A stretch of 64,000 nt of DNA from Deltaproteobacteria bacterium. Its GTDB lineage: Bacteria; Desulfobacterota; Desulfuromonadia; Desulfuromonadales; BM103. Made by a program: the position numbers and the translations under genes. This document shows, in pieces, positions 30,508 to 44,958 of this stretch. A model generated the notes under the pieces. It ran no database searches. It was given only the letters and a program-made list of their open reading frames with translations, and was not told the DNA's origin. The stretch is taken from the NCBI GenBank assembly GCA_024279915.1, contig JAJRRB010000078.1, positions 124,001-188,000 of the forward strand. The letters are read 5' to 3'. Within the stretch, counting starts at the first letter, position 1; each line of letters opens with the position of its first letter.

Positions 30508-31875
30508 ATGACCATGAATTTAATAAAGGAACAACATAAATCCAGACTCCTTGCTCTTTTAGCAAGCGGTGCCAAAACTTCTCCACAGCTACAACAGGCC
30601 TTGGCTGTCAGCCAACCCACTGTCTATCGTCTGTTGGGCTCGCTTTCGAGGCAGGTTGTCACTTTGGGTCGCGCTAGAGCAACACGCTACGCCATCTCTC
30701 GCAATGTAAGAGGGGTTGGAAGTGTTTTCCCAATCTACAAGGTAACTGAGACAGGAGATGTGTGCCAATTGGGTCGCTTGACGACTCTGCAGAGTGGACA
30801 ATATTGGTGGGAGCCAAACGGTCAAACTGGAGAGCTCTTTGATCATCTTCCCTGGTTTGTCCAGGACATGCGGCCCGAGGGCTTTATGGGGAGAGCCTTT
30901 GCTTATTCCAGAAGTGCTGAACTTGGAATACCTGAGAGGCTTAAAAGCTGGAATGATGACCACGTTTTGATTGCTTTGGCTCATCGCGGTGAAGATTGCA
31001 TGGGCAACCTGATCGTTGGCGAAGAATCGCTTGAGCGCTATTTACAAGGAGCCCGCCAAACAGCAGAGGCTATAAACAGCAGTGAGCGAGTAGAAACTTA
31101 CCCCGATCTTGTCCGAGAGGCTATGGCGGGTGATCCGCCAGGATCATCGGCCGGAGGAGAGCAACCCAAGTTTGCGGCACTGGTTATGGAGAATGAGGAG
31201 CTCAGACATGTCCTCGTCAAGTTCTCACCTTCGACCCGATTCGCGAACGGCAGGAGGTGGGCTGATTTACTTATTTGCGAACAAATTGCTTTGCAGATCA
31301 TCGAGGAGCGGGGGATAGGTGCAGTAAGCAGCGAGCTCATTGAGAGCAATGATCGTGTCATGCTCGAAGTTACTCGATTTGATCGTTGTGGCCAACTTGG
31401 CCGTTTGCCTATGCTTTCACTGGAAGCTGTTGACAATGAGTATTGCGGGGAACTCGATAACTGGATCGCGGCGGCAGCACGACTTGAGAGCAGCGGAAGG
31501 CTCTCTACTGATGACGCAAACAAGCTCAGATGGCTAGCGGTGTTTGGCAACCTGATCGCGAATACAGATCAGCACTTCGGCAATATTTCATTGCTTATGG
31601 ACGATGGTGGAAGATCCTTTACACTTGCACCTGCCTATGATGTACCGCCGATGCTTTATAGACCACAAGAGAATGAGATCCCCGAGCGTACCTTCAGTCC
31701 CAAGCTGCCACAAACGGGAGCCTTGGAGCAATGGCATGATGCACATCAATGGGCGGTTCGTTTTTGGCGTGCGGCGGCAGAGGACAAGCGAATTTCAAAG
31801 GAATTTAGGAGTATTTGCGACCAGAACCTCAAAACTGTCCAAGGGCTTTTGAATGGCCCACAGCTTCTTGTGTAG
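30508..31875 (+). CDS. yjjJ: YjjJ-type HipA-family kinase with N-terminal HTH
   Basis: 455 residues. The N-terminal 70 residues form a winged helix (TSPQLQQALAVSQPTVYRLL), so DNA binding and kinase are in one chain, unlike HipBA. HipA core: GGEQPKFAAL (about residues 214-223), catalytic NTDQHFGNISLL (about residues 352-363) and YDVPPM (about 378). HipA kinases phosphorylate GltX or other targets and slow growth. No hipB gene lies beside it. Starts: ATG 30508 or the ATG two codons later; no ribosome-binding site is clear, so it may be leaderless. Confidence 0.88.
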   Translation: MTMNLIKEQHKSRLLALLASGAKTSPQLQQALAVSQPTVYRLLGSLSRQVVTLGRARATRYAISRNVRGVGSVFPIYKVTETGDVCQLGRLTTLQSGQYWWEPNGQTGELFDHLPWFVQDMRPEGFMGRAFAYSRSAELGIPERLKSWNDDHVLIALAHRGEDCMGNLIVGEESLERYLQGARQTAEAINSSERVETYPDLVREAMAGDPPGSSAGGEQPKFAALVMENEELRHVLVKFSPSTRFANGRRWADLLICEQIALQIIEERGIGAVSSELIESNDRVMLEVTRFDRCGQLGRLPMLSLEAVDNEYCGELDNWIAAAARLESSGRLSTDDANKLRWLAVFGNLIANTDQHFGNISLLMDDGGRSFTLAPAYDVPPMLYRPQENEIPERTFSPKLPQTGALEQWHDAHQWAVRFWRAAAEDKRISKEFRSICDQNLKTVQGLLNGPQLLV

Positions 31876-34536: not shown

Positions 34537-36066
34537 ATGCTCGCCAAGGTTCTATCTGGGGCGCTGCTCGGTATCGATGCCTATCCGGTTGAGGTAGAAG
34601 TTGATATCGCTCAGGGTCTGCCACAGTTTGCTACAGTTGGTCTTCCCGATGGCGCGGTCAAGGAAAGCAAAGATCGCATCAAGTCCGCCATCAAAAATTC
34701 CGGTTACGAATTTCCCACCCGTCGCATCACAATCAATCTTGCTCCAGCAGATATCCGCAAGGAAGGTGCAGCCTTCGATTTGCCGATGGCGGTCGGTCTG
34801 TTGACTGCGACTGGTCTTGTGCCGTCGGAGCGTGCTGGCCGCTTCCTCTTTATGGGTGAACTTTCACTGGATGGCTGTATCAAGCCGGTGCGTGGTGTTC
34901 TGCCGGTGGCTGCCGCTGCCCGGCGCTGGGATCTGGACGGATTAATCGTACCTGCCGCCAATGCAGAAGAGGGAGCTCTGGTGAATGGCTTGCCGGTCTA
35001 TTCTGTAGAAACTTTGGGTGAAGTCGTTGATTTTCTCGCCGGTAACCGGGTGTTGGAGCCGTGTCAGGTTGATCTCGCAGCTCTGATCGGTAAAGCTGTA
35101 CAGAATGACGTCGATTTTAGCGAGGTACGCGGTCAGGGCCATGTCAAACGGGCTCTCGAAGTTGCTGCGGCTGGTGGTCATAACCTGTTGATGACAGGTC
35201 CTCCCGGCAGTGGGAAAACCATGCTGGCACGGCGTATCTCCACGATTCTGCCAGCACAAACCTTCGAGGAAGCTCTCGAAATAACCAAGATTCACTCGAT
35301 TCTCGGTCTGCTTCCCGTTGGCCAAGCCTTGGTTGCCAAGCGAGTATTCCGTTCTCCGCATCACACCATCTCAGATGCCGGGTTGATCGGTGGTGGCCCT
35401 CATCCACGTCCGGGTGAAGTTTCTCTAGCGCATAACGGCGTGCTCTTTCTTGATGAGTTGCCTGAATTCAAGAAAAACATCCTCGAGATGTTGCGGCAAC
35501 CACTCGAGGATGGCCAGGTCTGCATCAGTCGTGCGGCGTTAAGTTTGACCTACCCAGCGTCTTTCATGATGATTGCCGCGATGAATCCATGTCCTTGTGG
35601 TTATCAGGGCGATTCTCAACATAGTTGTACCTGCACGCCAGCAATGATCCAGCGCTACCGAACCCGTCTTTCCGGTCCACTGCTTGATCGTATTGATCTG
35701 CAGGTTGAGGTACCGCGTATTCCTCATAGCGATCTCTCTGACAAACGCCCGGCGGAGGCGAGTGAGCTGATTCGTAGCCGGGTGGAAAAGGCGCGAAACA
35801 TTCAGCAGGAACGCTTTGCTGGGTTGGGTATCCATTGCAACGCCCGTATGGGTCCCAAACAGTTACATGCCTTTTGTTGTACTGACGCGGCCGGGCAGGA
35901 GCTTTTAAAGCAAGTCACCGAACGACTTGGGTTGTCGGCTCGTACTTATACGCGCTTGCTCAAGGTGGCCCGCACCATTGCTGATCTTGCCGAGAGTGAA
36001 GAGATCGCCACCAACCATCTGGCGGAAGCGATTCAGTATCGTTCTCTTGATCGTCAAACAGTTTGA
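34537..36066 (+). CDS. comM: ComM/YifB Mg-chelatase-like AAA+ helicase
   Basis: 509 residues, full length. N-terminal ChlI-like domain (LPDGAVKESKDRIKSAI), Walker A GPPGSGKT (about residues 221-228), Walker B LFLDELPEF, and a cysteine-rich PCPCGYQGD. ComM is a branch-migration helicase in natural transformation. ATG 34537 follows AAGGAGGGATGT. Its last 36 codons before the final three are duplicated at 42224-42331, which marks the border of an inserted segment. Confidence 0.96.
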   Translation: MLAKVLSGALLGIDAYPVEVEVDIAQGLPQFATVGLPDGAVKESKDRIKSAIKNSGYEFPTRRITINLAPADIRKEGAAFDLPMAVGLLTATGLVPSERAGRFLFMGELSLDGCIKPVRGVLPVAAAARRWDLDGLIVPAANAEEGALVNGLPVYSVETLGEVVDFLAGNRVLEPCQVDLAALIGKAVQNDVDFSEVRGQGHVKRALEVAAAGGHNLLMTGPPGSGKTMLARRISTILPAQTFEEALEITKIHSILGLLPVGQALVAKRVFRSPHHTISDAGLIGGGPHPRPGEVSLAHNGVLFLDELPEFKKNILEMLRQPLEDGQVCISRAALSLTYPASFMMIAAMNPCPCGYQGDSQHSCTCTPAMIQRYRTRLSGPLLDRIDLQVEVPRIPHSDLSDKRPAEASELIRSRVEKARNIQQERFAGLGIHCNARMGPKQLHAFCCTDAAGQELLKQVTERLGLSARTYTRLLKVARTIADLAESEEIATNHLAEAIQYRSLDRQTV

Positions 36067-36230
36067 TTCAGGTTAATACGGTCGTCCAAAACGCATCCTA
36101 TTGCATAATAGACATGACTAATACGCAATGGCTTGCATAATAGTCGCATGAATAGAGTGCAGAAAAATATTATTGCGTAGCTTGGGTTTAATACCCCTCC
36201 GCTTGCAGCGTTTTAAAATCAAGACTATGG

Positions 36231-36269
36231 AAAATACCCCGCTTTCGCGAAGCGTAAGCGGGGTATTTT
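36231..36269. terminator. Bidirectional terminator after comM
   Basis: AAAATACCCCGCTT and AAGCGGGGTATTTT flank a short TCGCG-containing loop, between convergent comM and the metallophosphoesterase. A related degenerate TAATACCCCTCCGCTTGCAG lies about 40 bases before it. Confidence 0.85.
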
Positions 36270-36298
36270 ATTGCTCAAACTGTGACACAACGATAATT

Positions 36299-37147
36299 TT
36301 ATCCGTAAAATAATTCTTCAGTAAAACTTGTAACACCATCGTCAAGATGAATTTTTATCAAATGAACCTGCAGCGCAGAAGTCCCCCAATTCTCCAAATA
36401 GAAAAACATATTATAATCGGCCACACGATTGGCTGATGACAGCGAACCTATCATGTACTGGGTAAATGAACTGTCAAAATGGAGATCTGTGCTCTTTCTC
36501 AAGTCGAGGAGGTGGGTGTGACCGCAGAAAACATCCTCAATTTTGTGTTTCCTGACAAAAGTGGTCAATATTAAAGGATTCAGGAGCGGTGTCACATCTC
36601 CAGCCAAAATCGAATGATGAATCAACATCATGGACTTATCATATTTCATCCGGCTGATCTTCTCGGAGATGTCCCTTAAAATTTCCTCCTCAACAAAACC
36701 TTCATCTTGGTAAAGAACATTGGAATCTATACAAACAACCAGCAGGGTCATGTTCTCAACGTTAACTAGCTTAATATAATTATGGTCAGTAAAATAATTT
36801 TTGGTTTTTGAAATATCGGGTTTTAAATAAAGATCCTTTTTGGTTGTCAGTTCAGGTCTTGATGCCAAAATCACTTCATCATGGTCAATGTATTTCTTGT
36901 AATATTTATTTGATTGCATATTTCTCTTATCGTGATTGCCGATAATAGAAATAACATTTTCACAGGTAATACCCTTTAAGAACTCTCCCGCATCCTGATA
37001 TTCACTTTCAAGCCCATCAGTGGTACTGTCACCCGTATTAATAACCAGATCGGCAGGGTATGAGTTTATTTTATCAAGCAATATTTTGTTATTACCATCC
37101 CAATGACGTGTTCCAAAATGCAAATCGGATATATGTAAAATATTCAC
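36299..37147 (-). CDS. Calcineurin-like metallophosphoesterase
   Basis: 282 residues. All five metal motifs are present: DLH (residues 8-10), GDSTTDG (about 38), GNHDKR (about 68), HHS (about 190) and GHTH (about 228). The family includes cyclic-nucleotide phosphodiesterases (CpdA) and nucleases; the substrate is not evident. Start GTG 37147 with AAAGGA eight bases upstream. The gene is clearly AT-richer in codon use (ATA, AAA, TTA) than its neighbours, suggesting separate origin. It lies in the segment flanked by the two comM ends. Confidence 0.85.
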   Translation of the reverse strand: MNILHISDLHFGTRHWDGNNKILLDKINSYPADLVINTGDSTTDGLESEYQDAGEFLKGITCENVISIIGNHDKRNMQSNKYYKKYIDHDEVILASRPELTTKKDLYLKPDISKTKNYFTDHNYIKLVNVENMTLLVVCIDSNVLYQDEGFVEEEILRDISEKISRMKYDKSMMLIHHSILAGDVTPLLNPLILTTFVRKHKIEDVFCGHTHLLDLRKSTDLHFDSSFTQYMIGSLSSANRVADYNMFFYLENWGTSALQVHLIKIHLDDGVTSFTEELFYG

Positions 37148-37228
37148 TCCAGCTTTCCTTTATTTAAGAGCGATTCTCTCAAACACTTGATTTCACAAGG
37201 ATCGAGTTCTCAATGTGACCCTGAAAGG

Positions 37229-38014
<786 letters not shown>

Positions 38015-38039
38015 GCTTTCTCCTCGGAAACTTACCTGA

Positions 38040-39368
38040 TCAATGCTTATGGCCAGTTGCTAGTTTCACTTCCAGATGGCGACTGTATTTTGACATGGCA
38101 AAGCAGATTAAAAAGAACATCATCGCACCAAACACCAGCGGCTCTATATGAAGTCCAAGCCAAGTTCTGTCTTTGCCGATCGCGCGTAACATGTTGAGAA
38201 CGTCGAACAGACCGATGATGGACACCAGTGTGGTGTCTTTCAGTAGCGAGATAAAGTTGCCGACAATATTAGGAATCATATTCTTCAAAGCCTGGGGCAT
38301 GATAATCAGGCCCATGGTCTGCCAATAGCCCAGACCGATGGTGTGCCCCCCTTCAAATTGGCCTCTGGGAATGGTCTGAAGGCCTCCTCGAACGGTCTCA
38401 GCCATATAACAGGCGCTGAAAAGGCAGACAGCAATGATAACCTGAGTTAACTTGTTGAGGATAAAACCTTCTGGCATAAACAAAGGAAACATCGTTGTAG
38501 CCATAAATAAAATAGTTATCAAAGGGACTGAACGGAACAGTTCAATGAACGAGATGCTGAGTGCCCTGGCGACCGGCATCTCGGAGCGCCGACCAAGGGC
38601 AAGAATAATTCCGCCCGGCAGTGCCGAGGCAATGCCGATCCCCGCTACAACAAAAGTGAGAAACAAACCACCCCATTTGGTCCAGGAAACTCCCTCAAGA
38701 TTCCAGTTCATTTGCCACACATAAACCAAGACACAGCCGAGAGCGAGAACGCCGAGAAATATATTGCGCCGGCTCTTTTCATTGGCATTTTTCTGACCCA
38801 ACAAAAAGGGTAGAAATTCGGGCAGACTGCGACCGATCAACACACCAATAATCGAATGCAGGGTATTCGCTGCCAGACAAACGATTGCTGCGGTGAACAG
38901 GATCTGCATGAAGATGCCCTTATCACCGCCCGCAAAAAGGTAGCCTGCAAGGAAGGGATAGAGGAAGACTGCTGTCAGACCGATAGTTGTTTTTGCCTTA
39001 ACCCTTGGTAGCCAAAGTGGCAGCATCCAAACGAAAAGAGACAATATACCAAGGTTGATCCGCCACAATTCATCTCTCGGGTAGCGGCCATAGAAAATGT
39101 TGTCCACCCACGCAAAGATACCTGCCCAGCAGGCACCATCCGGGTTGATACTGAAACACTCACGTCGATTCTCGGCAACCCACACAGCATCGGCAATCCC
39201 CCATACCCACATCCCCTTGACCACCATATAAATAATATAAAGGGTCACGAAGGTGAGGAGAGTGTTGAACACCGAGTTGAACAGGTTCTTTTTCATCCAG
39301 CCTACAACTGATGTTTCCGATAAAGGTGCCGACAGGGCGGGTGTTTTCACTGCCTTTACAATAGCCAT
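38040..39368 (-). CDS. aapM: General L-amino-acid ABC transporter, permease AapM
   Basis: 442 residues, about 8-10 helices. The long cytoplasmic/periplasmic insertion after the first helix ([20 protein letters not shown]) and the C-terminal permease core with [20 protein letters not shown] (EAA-type loop) are typical of AapM/BztC. Two bases after the aapQ stop. Confidence 0.92.
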
Positions 39369-39370
39369 GA

Positions 39371-40588
39371 TCAGCGCTCCACCAGTTGTACGCGTTTATT
39401 GTAAATATTCATAATCCACGAAATAATCAGACTGACGACCATGTAAAAGGCCATGGTCATACCGACCAACTCAATCGCATAACCGGCCTGGTTCAGCGAT
39501 GTCTGCATGAAAAGAGAGACCAGGTCCGGATAACCGATAGCGATGGCCAACGATGAATTCTTGATTGTCGTCATACAATTACTGATCATCGGGGGAATAA
39601 TAGCGGGCATCGCCTGGGGAATAACGACAAGAGACATTGCCCGATTATTACTGAGGCCAAGTGACTTTGCAGCCTCATGTTGCCCCTTGTTTACAGATAG
39701 AATGCCGGCACGCACCATTTCGGCCGTATAGGAGGCATGATAAATGGTAAAGGCAAACAGAAGGGCCATGAAAGAGGGCGGCAGGCTCGCGCCTCCGACA
39801 AAATTGAATCCTTCAAGTTTTGGGATGTCCCAGTCAAGTGGCATTCCGGTCATAAAATAGACAACTCCCGGCAGAAAAATTAGTAATGCTGCGGAGACTA
39901 GAAAAGTCGGGTATGTTTGCCCGGTTTTGTCCTGACGATTTTGGACCCAGCGTCTAAAAGCAATAACCGCGATGATTGCAATGATAGCGGCTACGCCGGT
40001 CAACCAGAGGAGATCTCCTGGTATTGGCCATGGCATGTAAAAGCCACGATTATTGAGGAGCAAAACCTCTGCGCCACCGGACAGATCAATACTGTTCTTG
40101 ACTCTGGGCAGCAGGGAGAAAACGCCGATATACCAAAAAACAATCTGTATCAATAGCGGCGTGTTGCGAAAGATTTCCACATAGGCCAGGGCCACCTTGG
40201 AGACCAGCCAATTGCTGGAAAGTCTCATCACGCCAATAAAAAATCCCAGCATAGTGCTGAGTATAATTGCCAGAGCTGAAATATAGAGTGTGTTGAGAAC
40301 GCCAATGAAGAAGATCCGGCCATAGGTTCCGACCCCGGCCTCATTGGGAATGAGCTTGGAAGAACTGTCGAATCCGGCTGCGACACCAAGGAAGCCGAAA
40401 CCCGTGTTCATTCCGCGGGCTTCGAGATTTTGCGCAGTGTTGCTGACAAGGGACCAGACGAACCAGCCTACAGCCGCTGCGATCAGGACTTGATAGAAAA
40501 CCGAACGAACTCGCTCATCATGGAAAAAATCAAACTTTTCTTTTGGCTTCATCTGCACGGATTCTTCGCCATCGTCACGGACTTCCAC
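39371..40588 (-). CDS. aapQ: General L-amino-acid ABC transporter, permease AapQ
   Basis: 405 residues. N-terminal helix after a charged head, NTAQNLEARGMNTGFGFL (a family hallmark), and the EAA loop EMVRAGILSVNKGQHEAAKS. Starts with GTG at 40586-40588 behind AAGGGTAAATAAT. Separated from aapJ by 225 bases that carry a strong hairpin. Confidence 0.92.
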   Translation of the reverse strand: MEVRDDGEESVQMKPKEKFDFFHDERVRSVFYQVLIAAAVGWFVWSLVSNTAQNLEARGMNTGFGFLGVAAGFDSSSKLIPNEAGVGTYGRIFFIGVLNTLYISALAIILSTMLGFFIGVMRLSSNWLVSKVALAYVEIFRNTPLLIQIVFWYIGVFSLLPRVKNSIDLSGGAEVLLLNNRGFYMPWPIPGDLLWLTGVAAIIAIIAVIAFRRWVQNRQDKTGQTYPTFLVSAALLIFLPGVVYFMTGMPLDWDIPKLEGFNFVGGASLPPSFMALLFAFTIYHASYTAEMVRAGILSVNKGQHEAAKSLGLSNNRAMSLVVIPQAMPAIIPPMISNCMTTIKNSSLAIAIGYPDLVSLFMQTSLNQAGYAIELVGMTMAFYMVVSLIISWIMNIYNKRVQLVER

Positions 40589-40745
40589 ATTATTTACCCT
40601 TGATATTCGTTCTAAGAGGCTCAGGCAGTTAAAATTTAAATCGTATAGTGCAACATGCCCCCTATCAGGCTTGCGGGGCTCTGAACGTTTGACGAGACAG
40701 GGAACACGAACTCGCCCGGCATTATGGTTCCAGACTTTTGATTTT

Positions 40746-40780
40746 ACGATTGCTAGCCCCTCAAAGGGGCTAGCAATCGT
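40746..40780 (-). other. 15-bp perfect hairpin between aapJ and aapQ
   Basis: ACGATTGCTAGCCCC-TCAAA-GGGGCTAGCAATCGT. No T-run follows on the minus strand, so it is more likely an mRNA-stabilising or processing hairpin that keeps the binding-protein message abundant than a full terminator. Confidence 0.7.
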
Positions 40781-40813
40781 TCACACCAAGTTTGATTGGG
40801 GAATACTGACGAA

Positions 40814-41851
40814 TTAGCGCATAGGCGGTGAATACATCAGGCCACCGTTGCTCCAAAGCTCGTTAAGAGTTCCTTTACGATCGATGCCAAGGGCACCTTT
40901 GCCGCTACCGATATATTTTTCGTAGTTTTCACCGTAATTACCGACCTGCTTGATAATATTGTAGGCCCAGTCTTTGGAGAGCCCCAACCCTTCATGAAGG
41001 TTACCCTCAACACCAAGCATACGGCGTACATCCACATTTTTTGAACTGGCACGCATTTTGTCAACATTTGCGCTGGTCACGCCTAACTCCTCGGCGTTGA
41101 TCATGGCAAATTCAGACCATCTGACAATGTTGGCCCACTGACTGTCCCCTTGTCTCACCGCAGGCCCTAAAGGCTCTTTGGAAATGGTTTCAGGCAGAAT
41201 CATATGATCGTCAGGCTTTGGAAATGAAATGATATTGGCGGCCAATGATGATTTATCAATCGATACCGCATCGCATCCACCCTTAAGATATGTATCATCA
41301 CGGACATTCCAGTCCTCAAAGGTAACAGCGGTGATATTGAGGTTGTTTGCCCGGCTGAAGTCCGCCAGATTCAGTTCACTGGTCGTACCGGTCGTCACGC
41401 ACACCTTCGCACCCTTCAGTTGGAACGCACTGGTGATACCACTCGATTTGAGAACGGTAAAGCCCTGACCATCATAGAAATTTGGTGTCAGAAAATCTAA
41501 CCCGAGCTGAGTGTCACGTGACATTGTCCAGGTTGCAGTGCGCGACAAAAGGTCAGATTCTCCATTGGCCAGAGCGGTAAAGCGTGCTTGGCTACTAACG
41601 GATTGGAATTCCACTTTGTTTTTGTCGCCAAAAATGGCCGCAGCTACAGCCTCACATACTGCCACATCAAGGCCATACCAGTTGCCCTTGGCATCGAGAT
41701 TATAAAAACCACCCGAAGGAGTGCCAACCTGACAGCGTAAGTGACCACGTTTTTTGACAATATCCAGTGTTTTTCCTGCTGCCGAAGCGGAAACAGGGGC
41801 TGTTATTACAGCAAATGCTACAAACAATGTGAATAGTGTTGAGAGCTTCAT
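40814..41851 (-). CDS. aapJ: General L-amino-acid ABC transporter, binding protein
   Basis: 345 residues with signal peptide MKLSTLFTLFVAFAVITAPV and cleavage after ASA. The core begins KTLDIVKKRGHLRCQVGTPS and contains FTALANGESDLLSRTATWTM, typical of AapJ/BztA, which bind many L-amino acids in the periplasm. ATG 41851 chosen since GGAGGA lies 11 bases upstream and the signal peptide starts there. First gene of the operon. Confidence 0.94.
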   Translation of the reverse strand: MKLSTLFTLFVAFAVITAPVSASAAGKTLDIVKKRGHLRCQVGTPSGGFYNLDAKGNWYGLDVAVCEAVAAAIFGDKNKVEFQSVSSQARFTALANGESDLLSRTATWTMSRDTQLGLDFLTPNFYDGQGFTVLKSSGITSAFQLKGAKVCVTTGTTSELNLADFSRANNLNITAVTFEDWNVRDDTYLKGGCDAVSIDKSSLAANIISFPKPDDHMILPETISKEPLGPAVRQGDSQWANIVRWSEFAMINAEELGVTSANVDKMRASSKNVDVRRMLGVEGNLHEGLGLSKDWAYNIIKQVGNYGENYEKYIGSGKGALGIDRKGTLNELWSNGGLMYSPPMR

Positions 41852-42223
41852 TTCGAGTATCTTCCTCCATTTAAAGAAACTTACTAACAATGTGATCACT
41901 TCAGAAATCAATGATCACCCGAAGCCACTTTCGTGACCACCTGTCTTGATACAAAAAGAAAACATCAGTGGCCTGATCACCTCCTTATGTTTAGCTGACC
42001 TTCCTTCGATTTTGCCCGAAAGAGACTTTTTTGAGAGAGATGGGGGTAGTATCCAGCAAGCATAAACTAATGCTCATTTGAGTACGGCGATCATTTAATG
42101 CATAAGCACTCAAATGATCAATTAAACGGGCACTCGGTTTTGGAAAGAGCCAATTTCTTTTAACACCAGTTTCATAGTTAACAATATAGTACCAGATTTA
42201 AATATTTAAGGCGCATGTATGCG
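41852..42223. other. Upstream region of aapJ with inverted repeats
   Basis: No gene. TCATTTGAGT (42074-42083) and ACTCAAATGA (42108-42117) form a perfect 10-bp inverted repeat 24 bases apart, a candidate operator. TGATCAC is repeated at about 41893, 41922 and 41974. The left end of the comM fragment begins at 42224. Confidence 0.55.
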
Positions 42224-42343
42224 TATATGCGTTTGTTCAAGGTGGCTCGCACCATTGCTGATCTCGCCGAGAGTGAAGAGATCGCCACCAATCATCTGGC
42301 GGAAGCGATTCAGTATCGTTCTCTTGATCGTCCAGCGACATGA
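42224..42343 (+). pseudogene. 3'-terminal fragment of comM (diverged duplicate)
   Basis: 40 codons ([20 protein letters not shown]...) matching the end of comM at 35947-36066. Over the first 108 bases only six positions differ, all C/T, four of them synonymous; the last three codons then differ. The fragment has no comM start and is not a gene. It marks a duplication boundary. Confidence 0.93.
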
Positions 42344-42552
42344 TCAAGTCATTCGATAGTACAAGAGAAATTCGCAATCGGTAGCGAGACACGGATTACA
42401 CGGATGAACGCGGATTTTGAAGCCAAACATCCTAATCTGTGTAAATCAGCTTTGATTCGTGTCCAAAAGGTTTCAAGTCCAAAGAGGGTTAGCTTGGTCT
42501 GACTGCTGCCCTTCTGTTGACAAAAGGCACACATTGAAGTAGCGTGAATATT
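42344..42552. repeat. ACACGGATT-type inverted repeat tract
   Basis: GACACGGATTACACGGATGA near 42389-42408 and, in the opposite sense, AATCTGTGTAAATC and GATTCGTGTC near 42432-42470. The whole forms a long imperfect hairpin of a kind seen dispersed in many genomes; one copy here. Confidence 0.45.
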
Positions 42553-42822
42553 ATGAGTAGATTTGACTGGAGTGATGAGAAGAATGAGTTGCTTGAGCGT
42601 ACACGTGGAATCTGTTTCGAAGATGTACTCGTATGTATCCAGAACGGGGATGTCTTGGGCATTATTCGGCATCCCAATCAAGAACGTTACCCACATCAGA
42701 ACATCATCGTTCTTACTGCCGATGGATATGTGTGGCTCATCCCTTATGTGCAATCGGAAGGGATTCGGTTTTTAAAAACCATCATTCCAAGTCGGAAGGC
42801 AACCCAGGAGTATCTGCCATGA
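42553..42822 (+). CDS. Toxin of type II toxin-antitoxin pair, BrnT/DUF4258-like
   Basis: 89 residues beginning MSRFDWSDEKNELLERTRGI. The opening FDWxxEKN and the core VLTADGYVWLIPYV recall BrnT-like RNase toxins. A GTG three codons earlier is a possible start; the ribosome-binding site is weak. Stop TGA overlaps the antitoxin ATG (ATGA). Located beside the duplicated comM end, a common kind of place for such modules. Confidence 0.65.
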   Translation: MSRFDWSDEKNELLERTRGICFEDVLVCIQNGDVLGIIRHPNQERYPHQNIIVLTADGYVWLIPYVQSEGIRFLKTIIPSRKATQEYLP

Positions 42823-43103
42823 AAAAGAATCCAATGCAACTTGATAAGGAAGAACTTCAGATCTTGAGTGATTTTGAACAAAGTGAATTTCAGAGTATCA
42901 GTAACTTCAAAGCTGAAAAGCTGGAGCTTGAGACCGCTGCCCGCAATTCTCTTCAGAAAGACAAACGAATCAATATCCGCATCTCTTCCCGCGATTTGGA
43001 ACGTCTTCAAATGAGAGCCGCAAGGGAAGGTGTCCCCTATCAAACTTACATTTCCAGCTCCTTGCACAAACTGGTGTCGGGTCGGCTTGTAGAGGAAAAG
43101 TGA
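42819..43103 (+). CDS. Antitoxin of the pair, ribbon-helix-helix-like
   Basis: 94 residues. Acidic/helical N-terminal half and a C-terminal RINIRISSRDLERLQMRAAR region resembling CopG/BrnA ribbon-helix-helix, followed by GVPYQTYISSSLHKLVSGRL. Start overlaps the toxin stop. Likely neutralises the toxin and represses the operon. Confidence 0.7.
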   Translation: MKKNPMQLDKEELQILSDFEQSEFQSISNFKAEKLELETAARNSLQKDKRINIRISSRDLERLQMRAAREGVPYQTYISSSLHKLVSGRLVEEK

Positions 43104-43221: not shown

Positions 43222-44958
43222 ATGGGTGATTCTCTTCTGCCATTACTGACAGCAATTTCTTTCGTCTTCCTCGGTGCTCTGGTTGGCGGGCGCCTGGCAT
43301 CAGTTTGCCATATTCCTCGAGTCACCGGCTATCTGCTGACCGGCCTCCTGATTGGCCCATCATTCGCCCATCTCACCAATTTGCCCGTGTTGCTGCCCCC
43401 AGAGATTCTGCTCGAACTTCGCCCTCTCTCCGAAATGGCATTGGCTCTGATCCTGATGCATATCGGCGGTCTTTTTGAGATTCGCCACCTCGATCGTTGG
43501 CGGCATCGCATCCTGCTCTTTTCTGCGAGCGAAATCTTGCTGACCTTTTTTCTGGTCTTCGGCGCTGTTCTCACTGTCAATCTTGCTTTCTTGCAGAAGG
43601 TGGTGCCTGGATTGACTCTCTGGCAGACCTCTCTGGCCTTTGCTTTTTTCCTTGGCATTATTGCCGTGGCCACGGCTCCCGCTGCGACCTTGATGGTTAT
43701 TCGTGAATACGAGGCCGAAGGCCCGGTAACCAGCGTGGTGTTAACCCTGGTCGGTTTCAATAATCTGGTTTCTGTACTCGGCTTTGCTGTCCTGGCGCAT
43801 ATTTTTATCTTTCCGGGTGAGACTTTTGCTGTGCTGGTCATGCGCATGGGCGGGCCGATTCTGGTGGGTGCATTTCTAGGTTTTGCTATGTCGGTCTGGG
43901 CCCAGCGTCTGGAACTACCAAGTGAGAACAAGATCCTGATGCTCGGCGGGGTTGCTATCAATGTTGCTATCTGCAGGGCGTTACAGATTGACCCTTTGCT
44001 GGCGAGCATGGTGCTGGGGATGACCCTGGCGAACAGCTGCCCGCGCTGGCCTCGGCTGTAGAGCGATATTCGCCAGGTTGATTACCTGCTTTACGTGGCT
44101 TTTTTCGTGCTGGCTGGAGCTAGCCTGCATCTTGAGACCTTAACGCATCTTGGTCTGCTTGGTGTTGCCTATGTTGTTGCCCGAACTCTCGGTAAGTGGC
44201 TGGGAGCTGCTATCGGTGCTCGCCTCGGCAACTTCGGGCCTAACGAAAGGGCCTACATTGGTTTGACCATGATGGCTCAAGCCGGTGTTGCTATTGGTCT
44301 GGCCAGTCAACTGGCCCTTCATTGGCCGGTCGGCGGCAAGCTTCTGGAAACCGTTGTACTTGGTTCTGTAGTGGTCTTCGAACTGGTCGGCCCCCTCGCG
44401 GTACGCCACGGTCTGGTACGTTCCGGTGAGGTGCCGATCCTCGCGTTGTTGCAGAAGCGAGCTCCGGTGAGTGCCTTGGAGGGGATGCATAATGTTGTGC
44501 ATCATTTTCGTAGTTCTTTGGGAGTGCCGGTTGGTCACCGGCTTGAGGATCCAGGTGATATCCTGGTGCGGCATATCATGCGGCAGAATGTGGAGACGGT
44601 GCTGCACAGCACCCCGTATTATGCACTTCTCAAGCATATTGCTCACAGTCGCTATGATCGTTTCCCTGTGGTTGATGATGGCGACCGTTTTATTGGTGTC
44701 ATTGATTACACGGAAATTCGTAATTTGCTTTTTGAGCCCGCGCTGGTGCCCTTGGTCGTCGCCGGTGATCTGACCGCTTCGGCACCGTACTGCTTGCGGC
44801 CAGATCAACCTCTGCGTGAAGCCTTGAAAATCTTGCAGTTGCATCGCAATATCAGTTATTTTCCGGTTGTTGACAGCAATGATCCGCAAAAGCTGGTCGG
44901 CATTCTCAACCAGAATGATGTGCTGGCCGCCTTCCGTCGGCTGGGGCAGGATGCGTAA
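43222..44958 (+). pseudogene. CPA2-family cation/H+ antiporter with CBS domains, in-frame TAG
   Basis: The frame is open to a TAG at 44059-44061 (codon 280) and then continues unbroken to 44958, giving about 578 residues if read through. The part before the stop has the Na_H_Exchanger helices (GYLLTGLLIGPSFAHLTNLP); the part after it continues them (QVDYLLYVAFFVLAGASLHL) and ends with two CBS domains (about residues 450-575; YDRFPVVDDGDRFIGVIDY, ISYFPVVDSNDPQKLVGIL). CBS domains usually sense adenine nucleotides. The sequence just around the stop (PRWPRL*SDIRQ) is unlike the family, so a pair of small indels rather than a point change is possible. Two fragments or an assembly error are the alternatives. 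Confidence 0.8.

What the first reader, a model, noticed from the sequence alone, without database searches (positions are those of the whole stretch)
35947..42343. 6.3-kb segment bounded by two diverged comM 3' ends
The last 108 bases shared by comM (35947-36054) and the fragment (42224-42331) differ at six C/T positions only, then the final codons differ. Between them lie a metallophosphoesterase and aapJQMP. This looks like an insertion into the comM 3' end in which the incoming DNA restored the gene with its own version. comM is a known integration hotspot for islands, though usually inside the gene. No integrase is present, so homologous recombination with foreign DNA, maybe by natural transformation in which ComM itself acts, is possible.
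Basis: partly seen in the sequence, partly recalled or inferred. Interest (0 to 1): 0.75.

Follow-up and report, generated by a model that had tools for sequence, protein, structure and literature searches.

The report
Displaced comM end beside complete comM
In an environmental bacterium, inserted DNA gave a gene for a DNA-recombination helicase (comM) a replacement tail and left the old tail stranded 6 kb away; related bacteria show similar scars, some made by mobile elements that cut into exactly this gene.

Summary
Confirmed. The last 108 bp of comM (35947-36054) recur at 42224-42331 with six differences, all C/T; then the tails diverge (QTV* versus PAT*). The fragment is the native end: it lies on the kef side of the ancestral comM-kef junction, and the nearest relative compared, G010, keeps a decayed comM end there with the same kind of tail and flank. 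The DNA between is a patchwork: a DUF4143-gene relic, a genus-typical repeat, and a metallophosphoesterase-aapPMQJ cassette 92.7-93.0% identical to one elsewhere in G007, whose trxB-comM DNA is only 79.7% identical.

The window does not show the agent. In relatives comM is a hotspot. Ccr/XisF-like large serine recombinases enter it exactly at codon 351/352; comM 3' halves, with an HTH gene at the junction, lie downstream (seven read in one genome); and in two genomes the intact comM wears a foreign 3' half while the most distal copy is native. The window follows the same rule (distal native, proximal incoming) and is best read as an eroded insert-and-restore scar. But it has no HTH gene, att arm or such recombinase, its fragment starts at codon 470, and its 3' half is genus-type, so one-sided homologous recombination stays open.

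The parts
34537..36066 (+). comM, complete, 509 aa, ends DRQTV*
35569..35611 (+). site in comM equal to the attB used by serine recombinases in relatives (codon 351/352; core TG at 35590-35591), uninterrupted here
35947..36054 (+). copy 1 of the repeated comM end
36055..36066 (+). incoming tail of comM (QTV*)
36092..36176 (+). relic: upstream region and first codons of a DUF4143-type ATPase gene
   Evidence: 77% to G077 and G078 loci; family of the L236 homolog by Pfam
36170..36269 (.). genus-typical repeat ending in a terminator-like hairpin
   Evidence: matches in G002, G003, G007, G008, G010
36268..41988 (.). mobile cassette (metallophosphoesterase-aapPMQJ)
   Evidence: 92.7-93.0% DNA identity to G007 contig 97; also G064, G068, G076
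36299..37147 (-). metallophosphoesterase (PF00149)
37229..38014 (-). aapP, polar amino-acid ABC transporter ATPase
   Evidence: GlnQ model 332.6 bits, below cut-off 379
38040..39368 (-). aapM, permease
   Evidence: PF00528
40814..41851 (-). aapJ, solute-binding protein
   Evidence: PF00497
41989..42223 (.). right linker, origin unknown; no HTH or att arm found
42224..42343 (+). displaced native comM end (codons about 470-508), ends DRPAT*
42435..42490 (+). native flank, homologous to the flank after the decayed comM end of G010
   Evidence: 84% over 56 bp
43222..44958 (+). kef-like antiporter gene, ancestral right neighbour of comM; one in-frame stop

Best explanation
The window holds the eroded scar of an insert-and-restore event at comM. 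Incoming DNA from a fairly close relative carried its own comM 3' end and downstream cargo. It joined the host gene so that comM stayed, or became again, complete with the donor's tail, and the host's own tail was pushed to the far side next to the old neighbour kef. It works like prophage e14 in icd or SCC in rlmH. Shown: two comM ends, the distal one native by position, flank and tail, and a recently exchanged cassette between them. Inferred: that an integrative element did it, and that its recombinase was lost as the island eroded. In relatives this kind of outcome is tied to large serine recombinases that cut comM at a fixed TG between codons 351 and 352; that link to the window is by analogy.
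For: Position and flank: the fragment is on the kef side; comM-to-kef distance is 80-81 bp in G006, G008 and G012 and 165 bp in G009; G010 has a decayed comM end there, ending PVT*, with the same flank. The intact tail QTV* looks like ordinary family tails (G008 QTT, G006 QST, G014 KTV). The cassette is 92.7-93.0% identical to G007 while trxB-comM DNA is 79.7%. The left linker holds a relic of a gene unrelated to comM. Relatives: recombinase at comM in 4 of 4 genomes that have it, of 136; 5 of 5 left and 18 of 18 right junctions at the same TG; in G113 and G055 the intact 3' half is foreign and the most distal copy native.
Against: No recombinase of that family in this genome at E 1e-50, no HTH gene, no att arm above shuffled sequence. 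The fragment starts at codon 470, not 352. The intact 3' half is of genus type (79.8% left / 74.8% right of codon 351 against G001; baseline G001-G012 78.6 / 72.3), so there is no sign of a swap from outside the genus. The linker repeat is ordinary genus DNA.
Confidence: 0.55

Rival explanations
1. One-sided homologous recombination with donor DNA, by transformation or another route: one crossover in comM, the other end joined illegitimately at codon 470, so the donor's comM end and its downstream genes were added without an integrase.
For: No integrase in the segment; the intact comM is genus-type throughout; the linker repeat is typical of the genus, so the donor DNA looks like ordinary chromosome of a relative. 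Recombination tracts over comM are reported in A. baumannii (PMC11472951, passages).
Against: No relative with comM followed by this linker and cassette was found among 136 genomes of the order. Such events usually delete recipient DNA (recalled), whereas here the native end is kept.
Confidence: 0.3
2. Local duplication of the comM end followed by insertion of the cassette between the copies and later divergence.
For: 108 bp with only six differences; most differences can be explained by change in an unselected copy, although the direction of most is ambiguous.
Against: The two tails differ abruptly after a 94% identical body, and each resembles a tail found elsewhere (QTT/QST/KTV versus G010's PVT).
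Confidence: 0.1
3. Assembly or binning artefact.
For: The genome is a 99-contig assembly with 2.7% estimated contamination.
Against: A 286-kb contig with conserved neighbours on both sides and a displaced comM end at the same place in G010.
Confidence: 0.05

Closest known systems
Prophage e14 in icd of E. coli (PMC6379469, passages)
   Same: The element supplies the 3' end of a protein gene; a short displaced copy (163 bp there, 120 bp here) is left at the far side
   Different: e14 has its integrase (recalled); none is seen here; different gene; here the middle is a patchwork with transporter genes
SCCmec / Enterococcus cassette chromosome in rlmH (PMC6222049, passages)
   Same: Large serine recombinases at the 3' region of a conserved gene; the comM recombinase of the relatives scores best against CcrB, XisF and CcrC (below cut-offs)
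   Different: comM is cut at two thirds of its length, and 3' halves of about 157 codons are left, instead of short att repeats
Tn6022/AbaR and Tsy elements in comM (PMC10293859, PMC7508600, passages)
   Same: comM as a preferred target; comM pieces on both sides of the island
   Different: Tn7-like or tyrosine enzymes near the Walker B region; comM is interrupted, not given a new end. The Tn7-like island of relative G024 is of this kind; the window is not
Dehalococcoides ssrA islands (PMC3146451, passages)
   Same: Serine recombinase at a single-copy conserved gene, direct repeat of the gene at the boundaries
   Different: Target is the tmRNA gene

Membership tests
Gene-restoring integrative element scar (e14/icd type), window | Complete target gene plus displaced 3' end of the same gene | tested here: met
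Gene-restoring integrative element scar (e14/icd type), window | Displaced end is the native one | tested here: met
Gene-restoring integrative element scar (e14/icd type), window | Recombinase gene in the element | tested here: not met
   none among the ORFs of the segment; hence called a relic at most, not filed as a member
comM codon-351/352 serine-recombinase islands of relatives | comM 3' half starting at TG of codon 352 | tested here: not met
   the window fragment starts at about codon 470
comM codon-351/352 serine-recombinase islands of relatives | HTH gene at the right junction and att arm | tested here: not met
   nothing above shuffled sequence
comM codon-351/352 serine-recombinase islands of relatives | Foreign 3' half in the complete comM | tested here: inconclusive
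   genus-type 3' half; a within-genus swap cannot be excluded
Tn6022/AbaR-type insertion | tns/tni genes and interruption of comM | tested here: not met
   comM is whole and no such genes are seen in the segment

The most novel reading that the evidence does not exclude
In this order, serine-recombinase islands carry spare comM 3' halves as a travelling lineage. By integrating at codon 351/352 and excising between attL and a non-native attR they swap the C-terminal part of a host helicase and leave tandem scars. The window is a worn, within-genus case of this cycle, with amino-acid-uptake cargo fixed as residue.
Probability: 0.3. Interest if true: 0.75.

Novelty: new variant of a known kind. 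Interest (0 to 1): 0.5.

Why it matters
ComM helps recombine heterologous DNA during transformation, and elements that hit it have been discussed as parties in host-element conflict (PMC11472951, passages). In this order the gene is repeatedly broken and complete again, with the change visible as a swapped 3' half at base-pair precision in two genomes. This makes it testable whether element-borne gene halves repair a competence gene and whether cargo such as aap is fixed as a by-product. It also gives a common explanation for the stray comM ends seen in many of these genomes.

Tried and rejected
Right linker 41989-42223 for HTH or att remnants: nothing above shuffled sequence. Left linker as the end of a mobile element: it proved to be a DUF4143-gene relic plus a genus repeat. 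A 3' half from outside the genus in the window's comM: not supported. Silent against amino-acid changes as a clock: 4 against 2 of 6, too few; the direction of most differences was ambiguous. A relative with comM directly before the aap cassette: none among 136 genomes. Orphan comM ends of G005, G013, G021, G023, G027 and one of G114 begin at or next to contig ends, so their true left limits are unknown. Tree support values were not examined; the identity figures carry the chimera claim for G113 and G055. Literature: searches pairing comM with serine recombinase, large serine recombinase plus island, Geobacter, Desulfuromonas or integrative element, and Mg chelatase with serine integrase or attB, listed no paper whose title or abstract start describes serine-recombinase islands in comM; only open-licence PMC text was searched, listings were capped, and searches were swamped by words that begin with 'comm'. 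Set aside: one intact gene, two longer remnants (L123, L217) and one misplaced match (L277); G084 and G132 halves lay too near contig ends to be shown.

Full report
OBSERVATION. The finding is right to the base. 35947-36054 and 42224-42331 are 108 bp with six differences, all C/T. In the own genome this stretch has only these two places. On the left, homology stops at about codon 470; on the right it stops after GATCGTC, and the intact gene ends QTV* while the fragment ends PAT*.

WHICH END IS NATIVE. In the genus the order is CDF-trxB-comM-kef-DUFx, with purA-hisZ beyond where the contig reaches. From the last aligned comM codon to kef there are 80-81 bp in G006, G008 and G012 and 165 bp in G009; in G001, G004 and G005 a roughly 697-aa transporter-like gene (an APC permease by recall) lies between. 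In the window the fragment is on the kef side. The nearest relative compared, G010 (comM codons 1-336 97%, kef 95-97%), has on the kef side a decayed comM end finishing PVT*, followed by the same flank (window 42435-42490, 84% over 56 bp). So the fragment is best read as the native end and the complete gene as carrying the incoming tail, which resembles other tails of the family (QTT in G008, QST in G006, KTV in G014). Left of its comM remnant G010 has other cargo: an ABC-transporter ATPase gene and an ORF I take, by recall, for a dihydroxyacetone kinase. Its own comM 5' part ends at a contig end, so whether it has a complete comM is unknown.

WHAT LIES BETWEEN. 36268-41988 (metallophosphoesterase, aapP, M, Q, J) matches G007 contig 97 at 92.7-93.0% DNA identity, beside genes I take for tdh and kbl by recall; the trxB-comM stretch of the same two genomes is 79.7% identical. 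The phosphoesterase is present in 6 of 136 genomes of the order, own included, at E 1e-15. An aapM with at least 79% identity is present in 5 of 136, own included; in the other four it is not on the contig of the best comM match. So the cassette is mobile and recently exchanged. The 200 bp between the comM stop and the cassette contain the start of a DUF4143-type ATPase gene and a repeat matched in five same-genus genomes. The 236 bp before the fragment matched nothing in 26 genomes or in eight loci. The segment is thus a patchwork, as an eroded island would be.

THE HOTSPOT IN RELATIVES. comM was sought in 136 genomes of the order: 123 have a match at E 1e-9 and 37 have two or more (my count from the table; contig breaks within comM inflate it). 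Three kinds of intruder were seen. (1) A large serine recombinase of about 500 aa (PF00239, PF07508; best curated relatives CcrB, XisF, CcrC, all below cut-off) abuts comM codon 351/352. At E 1e-50 it is present in 4 of 136 genomes and in all 4 it sits at comM (G002, G025, G027, G073); G036 has a partial copy at a contig end there. (2) Another serine recombinase (610 aa) abuts comM at about codon 31 in G006, and the comM contig of G003 ends at the same point. (3) A Tn7-like set (TnsA, a Mu-type transposase, TniB, TniQ) interrupts comM at about codon 285 in G024.

EXACT JUNCTIONS. All 5 left junctions of kind 1 read AATCCC then TG. All 18 right junctions shown, from 9 genomes, resume comM exactly at TG of codon 352 (the rows set aside are named in Tried and rejected). 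An HTH gene, whole or partial, lies at the junction in 17 of the 17 that were; the 18th (L278) was fetched later and not tested. Joining the two arms of the G002 element gives a 50-nt inverted repeat around the central TG (fold z-score -7.75), as expected of a serine-integrase attP.

ARRAYS AND SWAPS. G073 (one contig) has comM codons 1-355 next to the recombinase and nine comM matches in all; I read seven comM 3' halves, spread over about 235 kb on one strand. G113 and G055 have a complete comM and two downstream 3' halves each; their 5' halves group with their genus, their intact 3' halves do not, and the most distal 3' half does. Against genus-mate G039, G113 comM is 88.7% identical left and 71.1% right of codon 351, and its distal scar 88.3%. 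Against G034, G055 comM is 88.2% and 69.6%, and its distal scar 85.6%. In 60-bp steps identity falls from 93 to 51% and from 95 to 58% at the crossover. G007 and G009 are chimeric too (about 79-82% left, 61-63% right against G000 and G001). In the tree of 97 3' halves, 13 halves of six genomes in four families group together (G002, G055, G073, G082, G084, G113), which suggests an element-borne lineage (no support values seen). The simplest reading, inferred, is that composite elements carry an internal attR with a foreign comM 3' half, and that excision of the inner part leaves a complete chimeric comM and a residue ending in HTH plus the native half. Against a general rule: in G049, G079 and G090 the copies are all of one type, so no swap is visible, and where the recombinase itself is present (5 genomes) comM is interrupted, not restored.

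BACK TO THE WINDOW. The rule 'distal native, proximal incoming' fits. But the fragment begins at codon 470, no HTH gene or att arm was found, no recombinase of that family is in the genome, and the 3' half of the intact gene is genus-type (79.8/74.8% against G001, baseline G001-G012 78.6/72.3%). So the window is a truncated relic of this cycle, or of an e14-like element with its crossover near codon 470, or a product of one-sided homologous recombination. I give integrative-element origin 0.55 and homologous recombination 0.3. The 108-bp direct repeats would also let the segment loop out again by recombination (inference).

KNOWN KINDS. e14 in icd leaves a 163-bp pseudo-icd' and supplies the gene's 3' end (PMC6379469, passages). 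SCC and ECC use Ccr serine recombinases at the 3' region of rlmH (PMC6222049, passages). Dehalococcoides islands use a serine recombinase at ssrA (PMC3146451, passages). comM is a known target of Tn6022-like and Tsy elements (PMC10293859, passages) and of AbaR (PMC7508600, passages). Mending of comM by recombination was considered in A. baumannii but was not more frequent than chance (PMC11472951, passages). I saw no paper on serine-recombinase islands in comM. I rate it a new variant of a known kind.

Noticed in passing
window 43222-44958: The kef-like gene, one 578-aa ORF in G010 and G006, has a single in-frame stop here.
   Followed up: partly
window 42544-43103: A 92-aa ORF and an overlapping CopG/BrnA-like antitoxin gene (PF12441; BrnA model below cut-off) lie between the displaced comM end and kef; the 92-aa partner has no family hit.
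   Followed up: partly
window 42388-42431: A short repeat after the fragment recurs at several places in the own genome and in G010.
   Followed up: no
L120, L121 (G006): A 26-kb island with a 610-aa serine recombinase interrupts comM at about codon 31; the comM contig of G003 ends at the same point.
   Followed up: partly
L139, L140 (G024): A Tn7-like island interrupts comM at about codon 285, and a second comM end (codons 453-509) lies about 15 kb further on.
   Followed up: partly
L147 and L133 (G005): The comM contigs overlap by exactly 95 bp within the comM end, as expected if the assembler met two copies of it.
   Followed up: no
L264, L265 (G082): Two complete comM genes in one assembly, whose 5' halves group with different families; contamination is possible.
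   Followed up: no
window 30508-31875: A HipA_C-domain gene lies upstream of the CDF-trxB-comM block; its spread was not studied, but it gave no hit in the comM loci searched.
   Followed up: no
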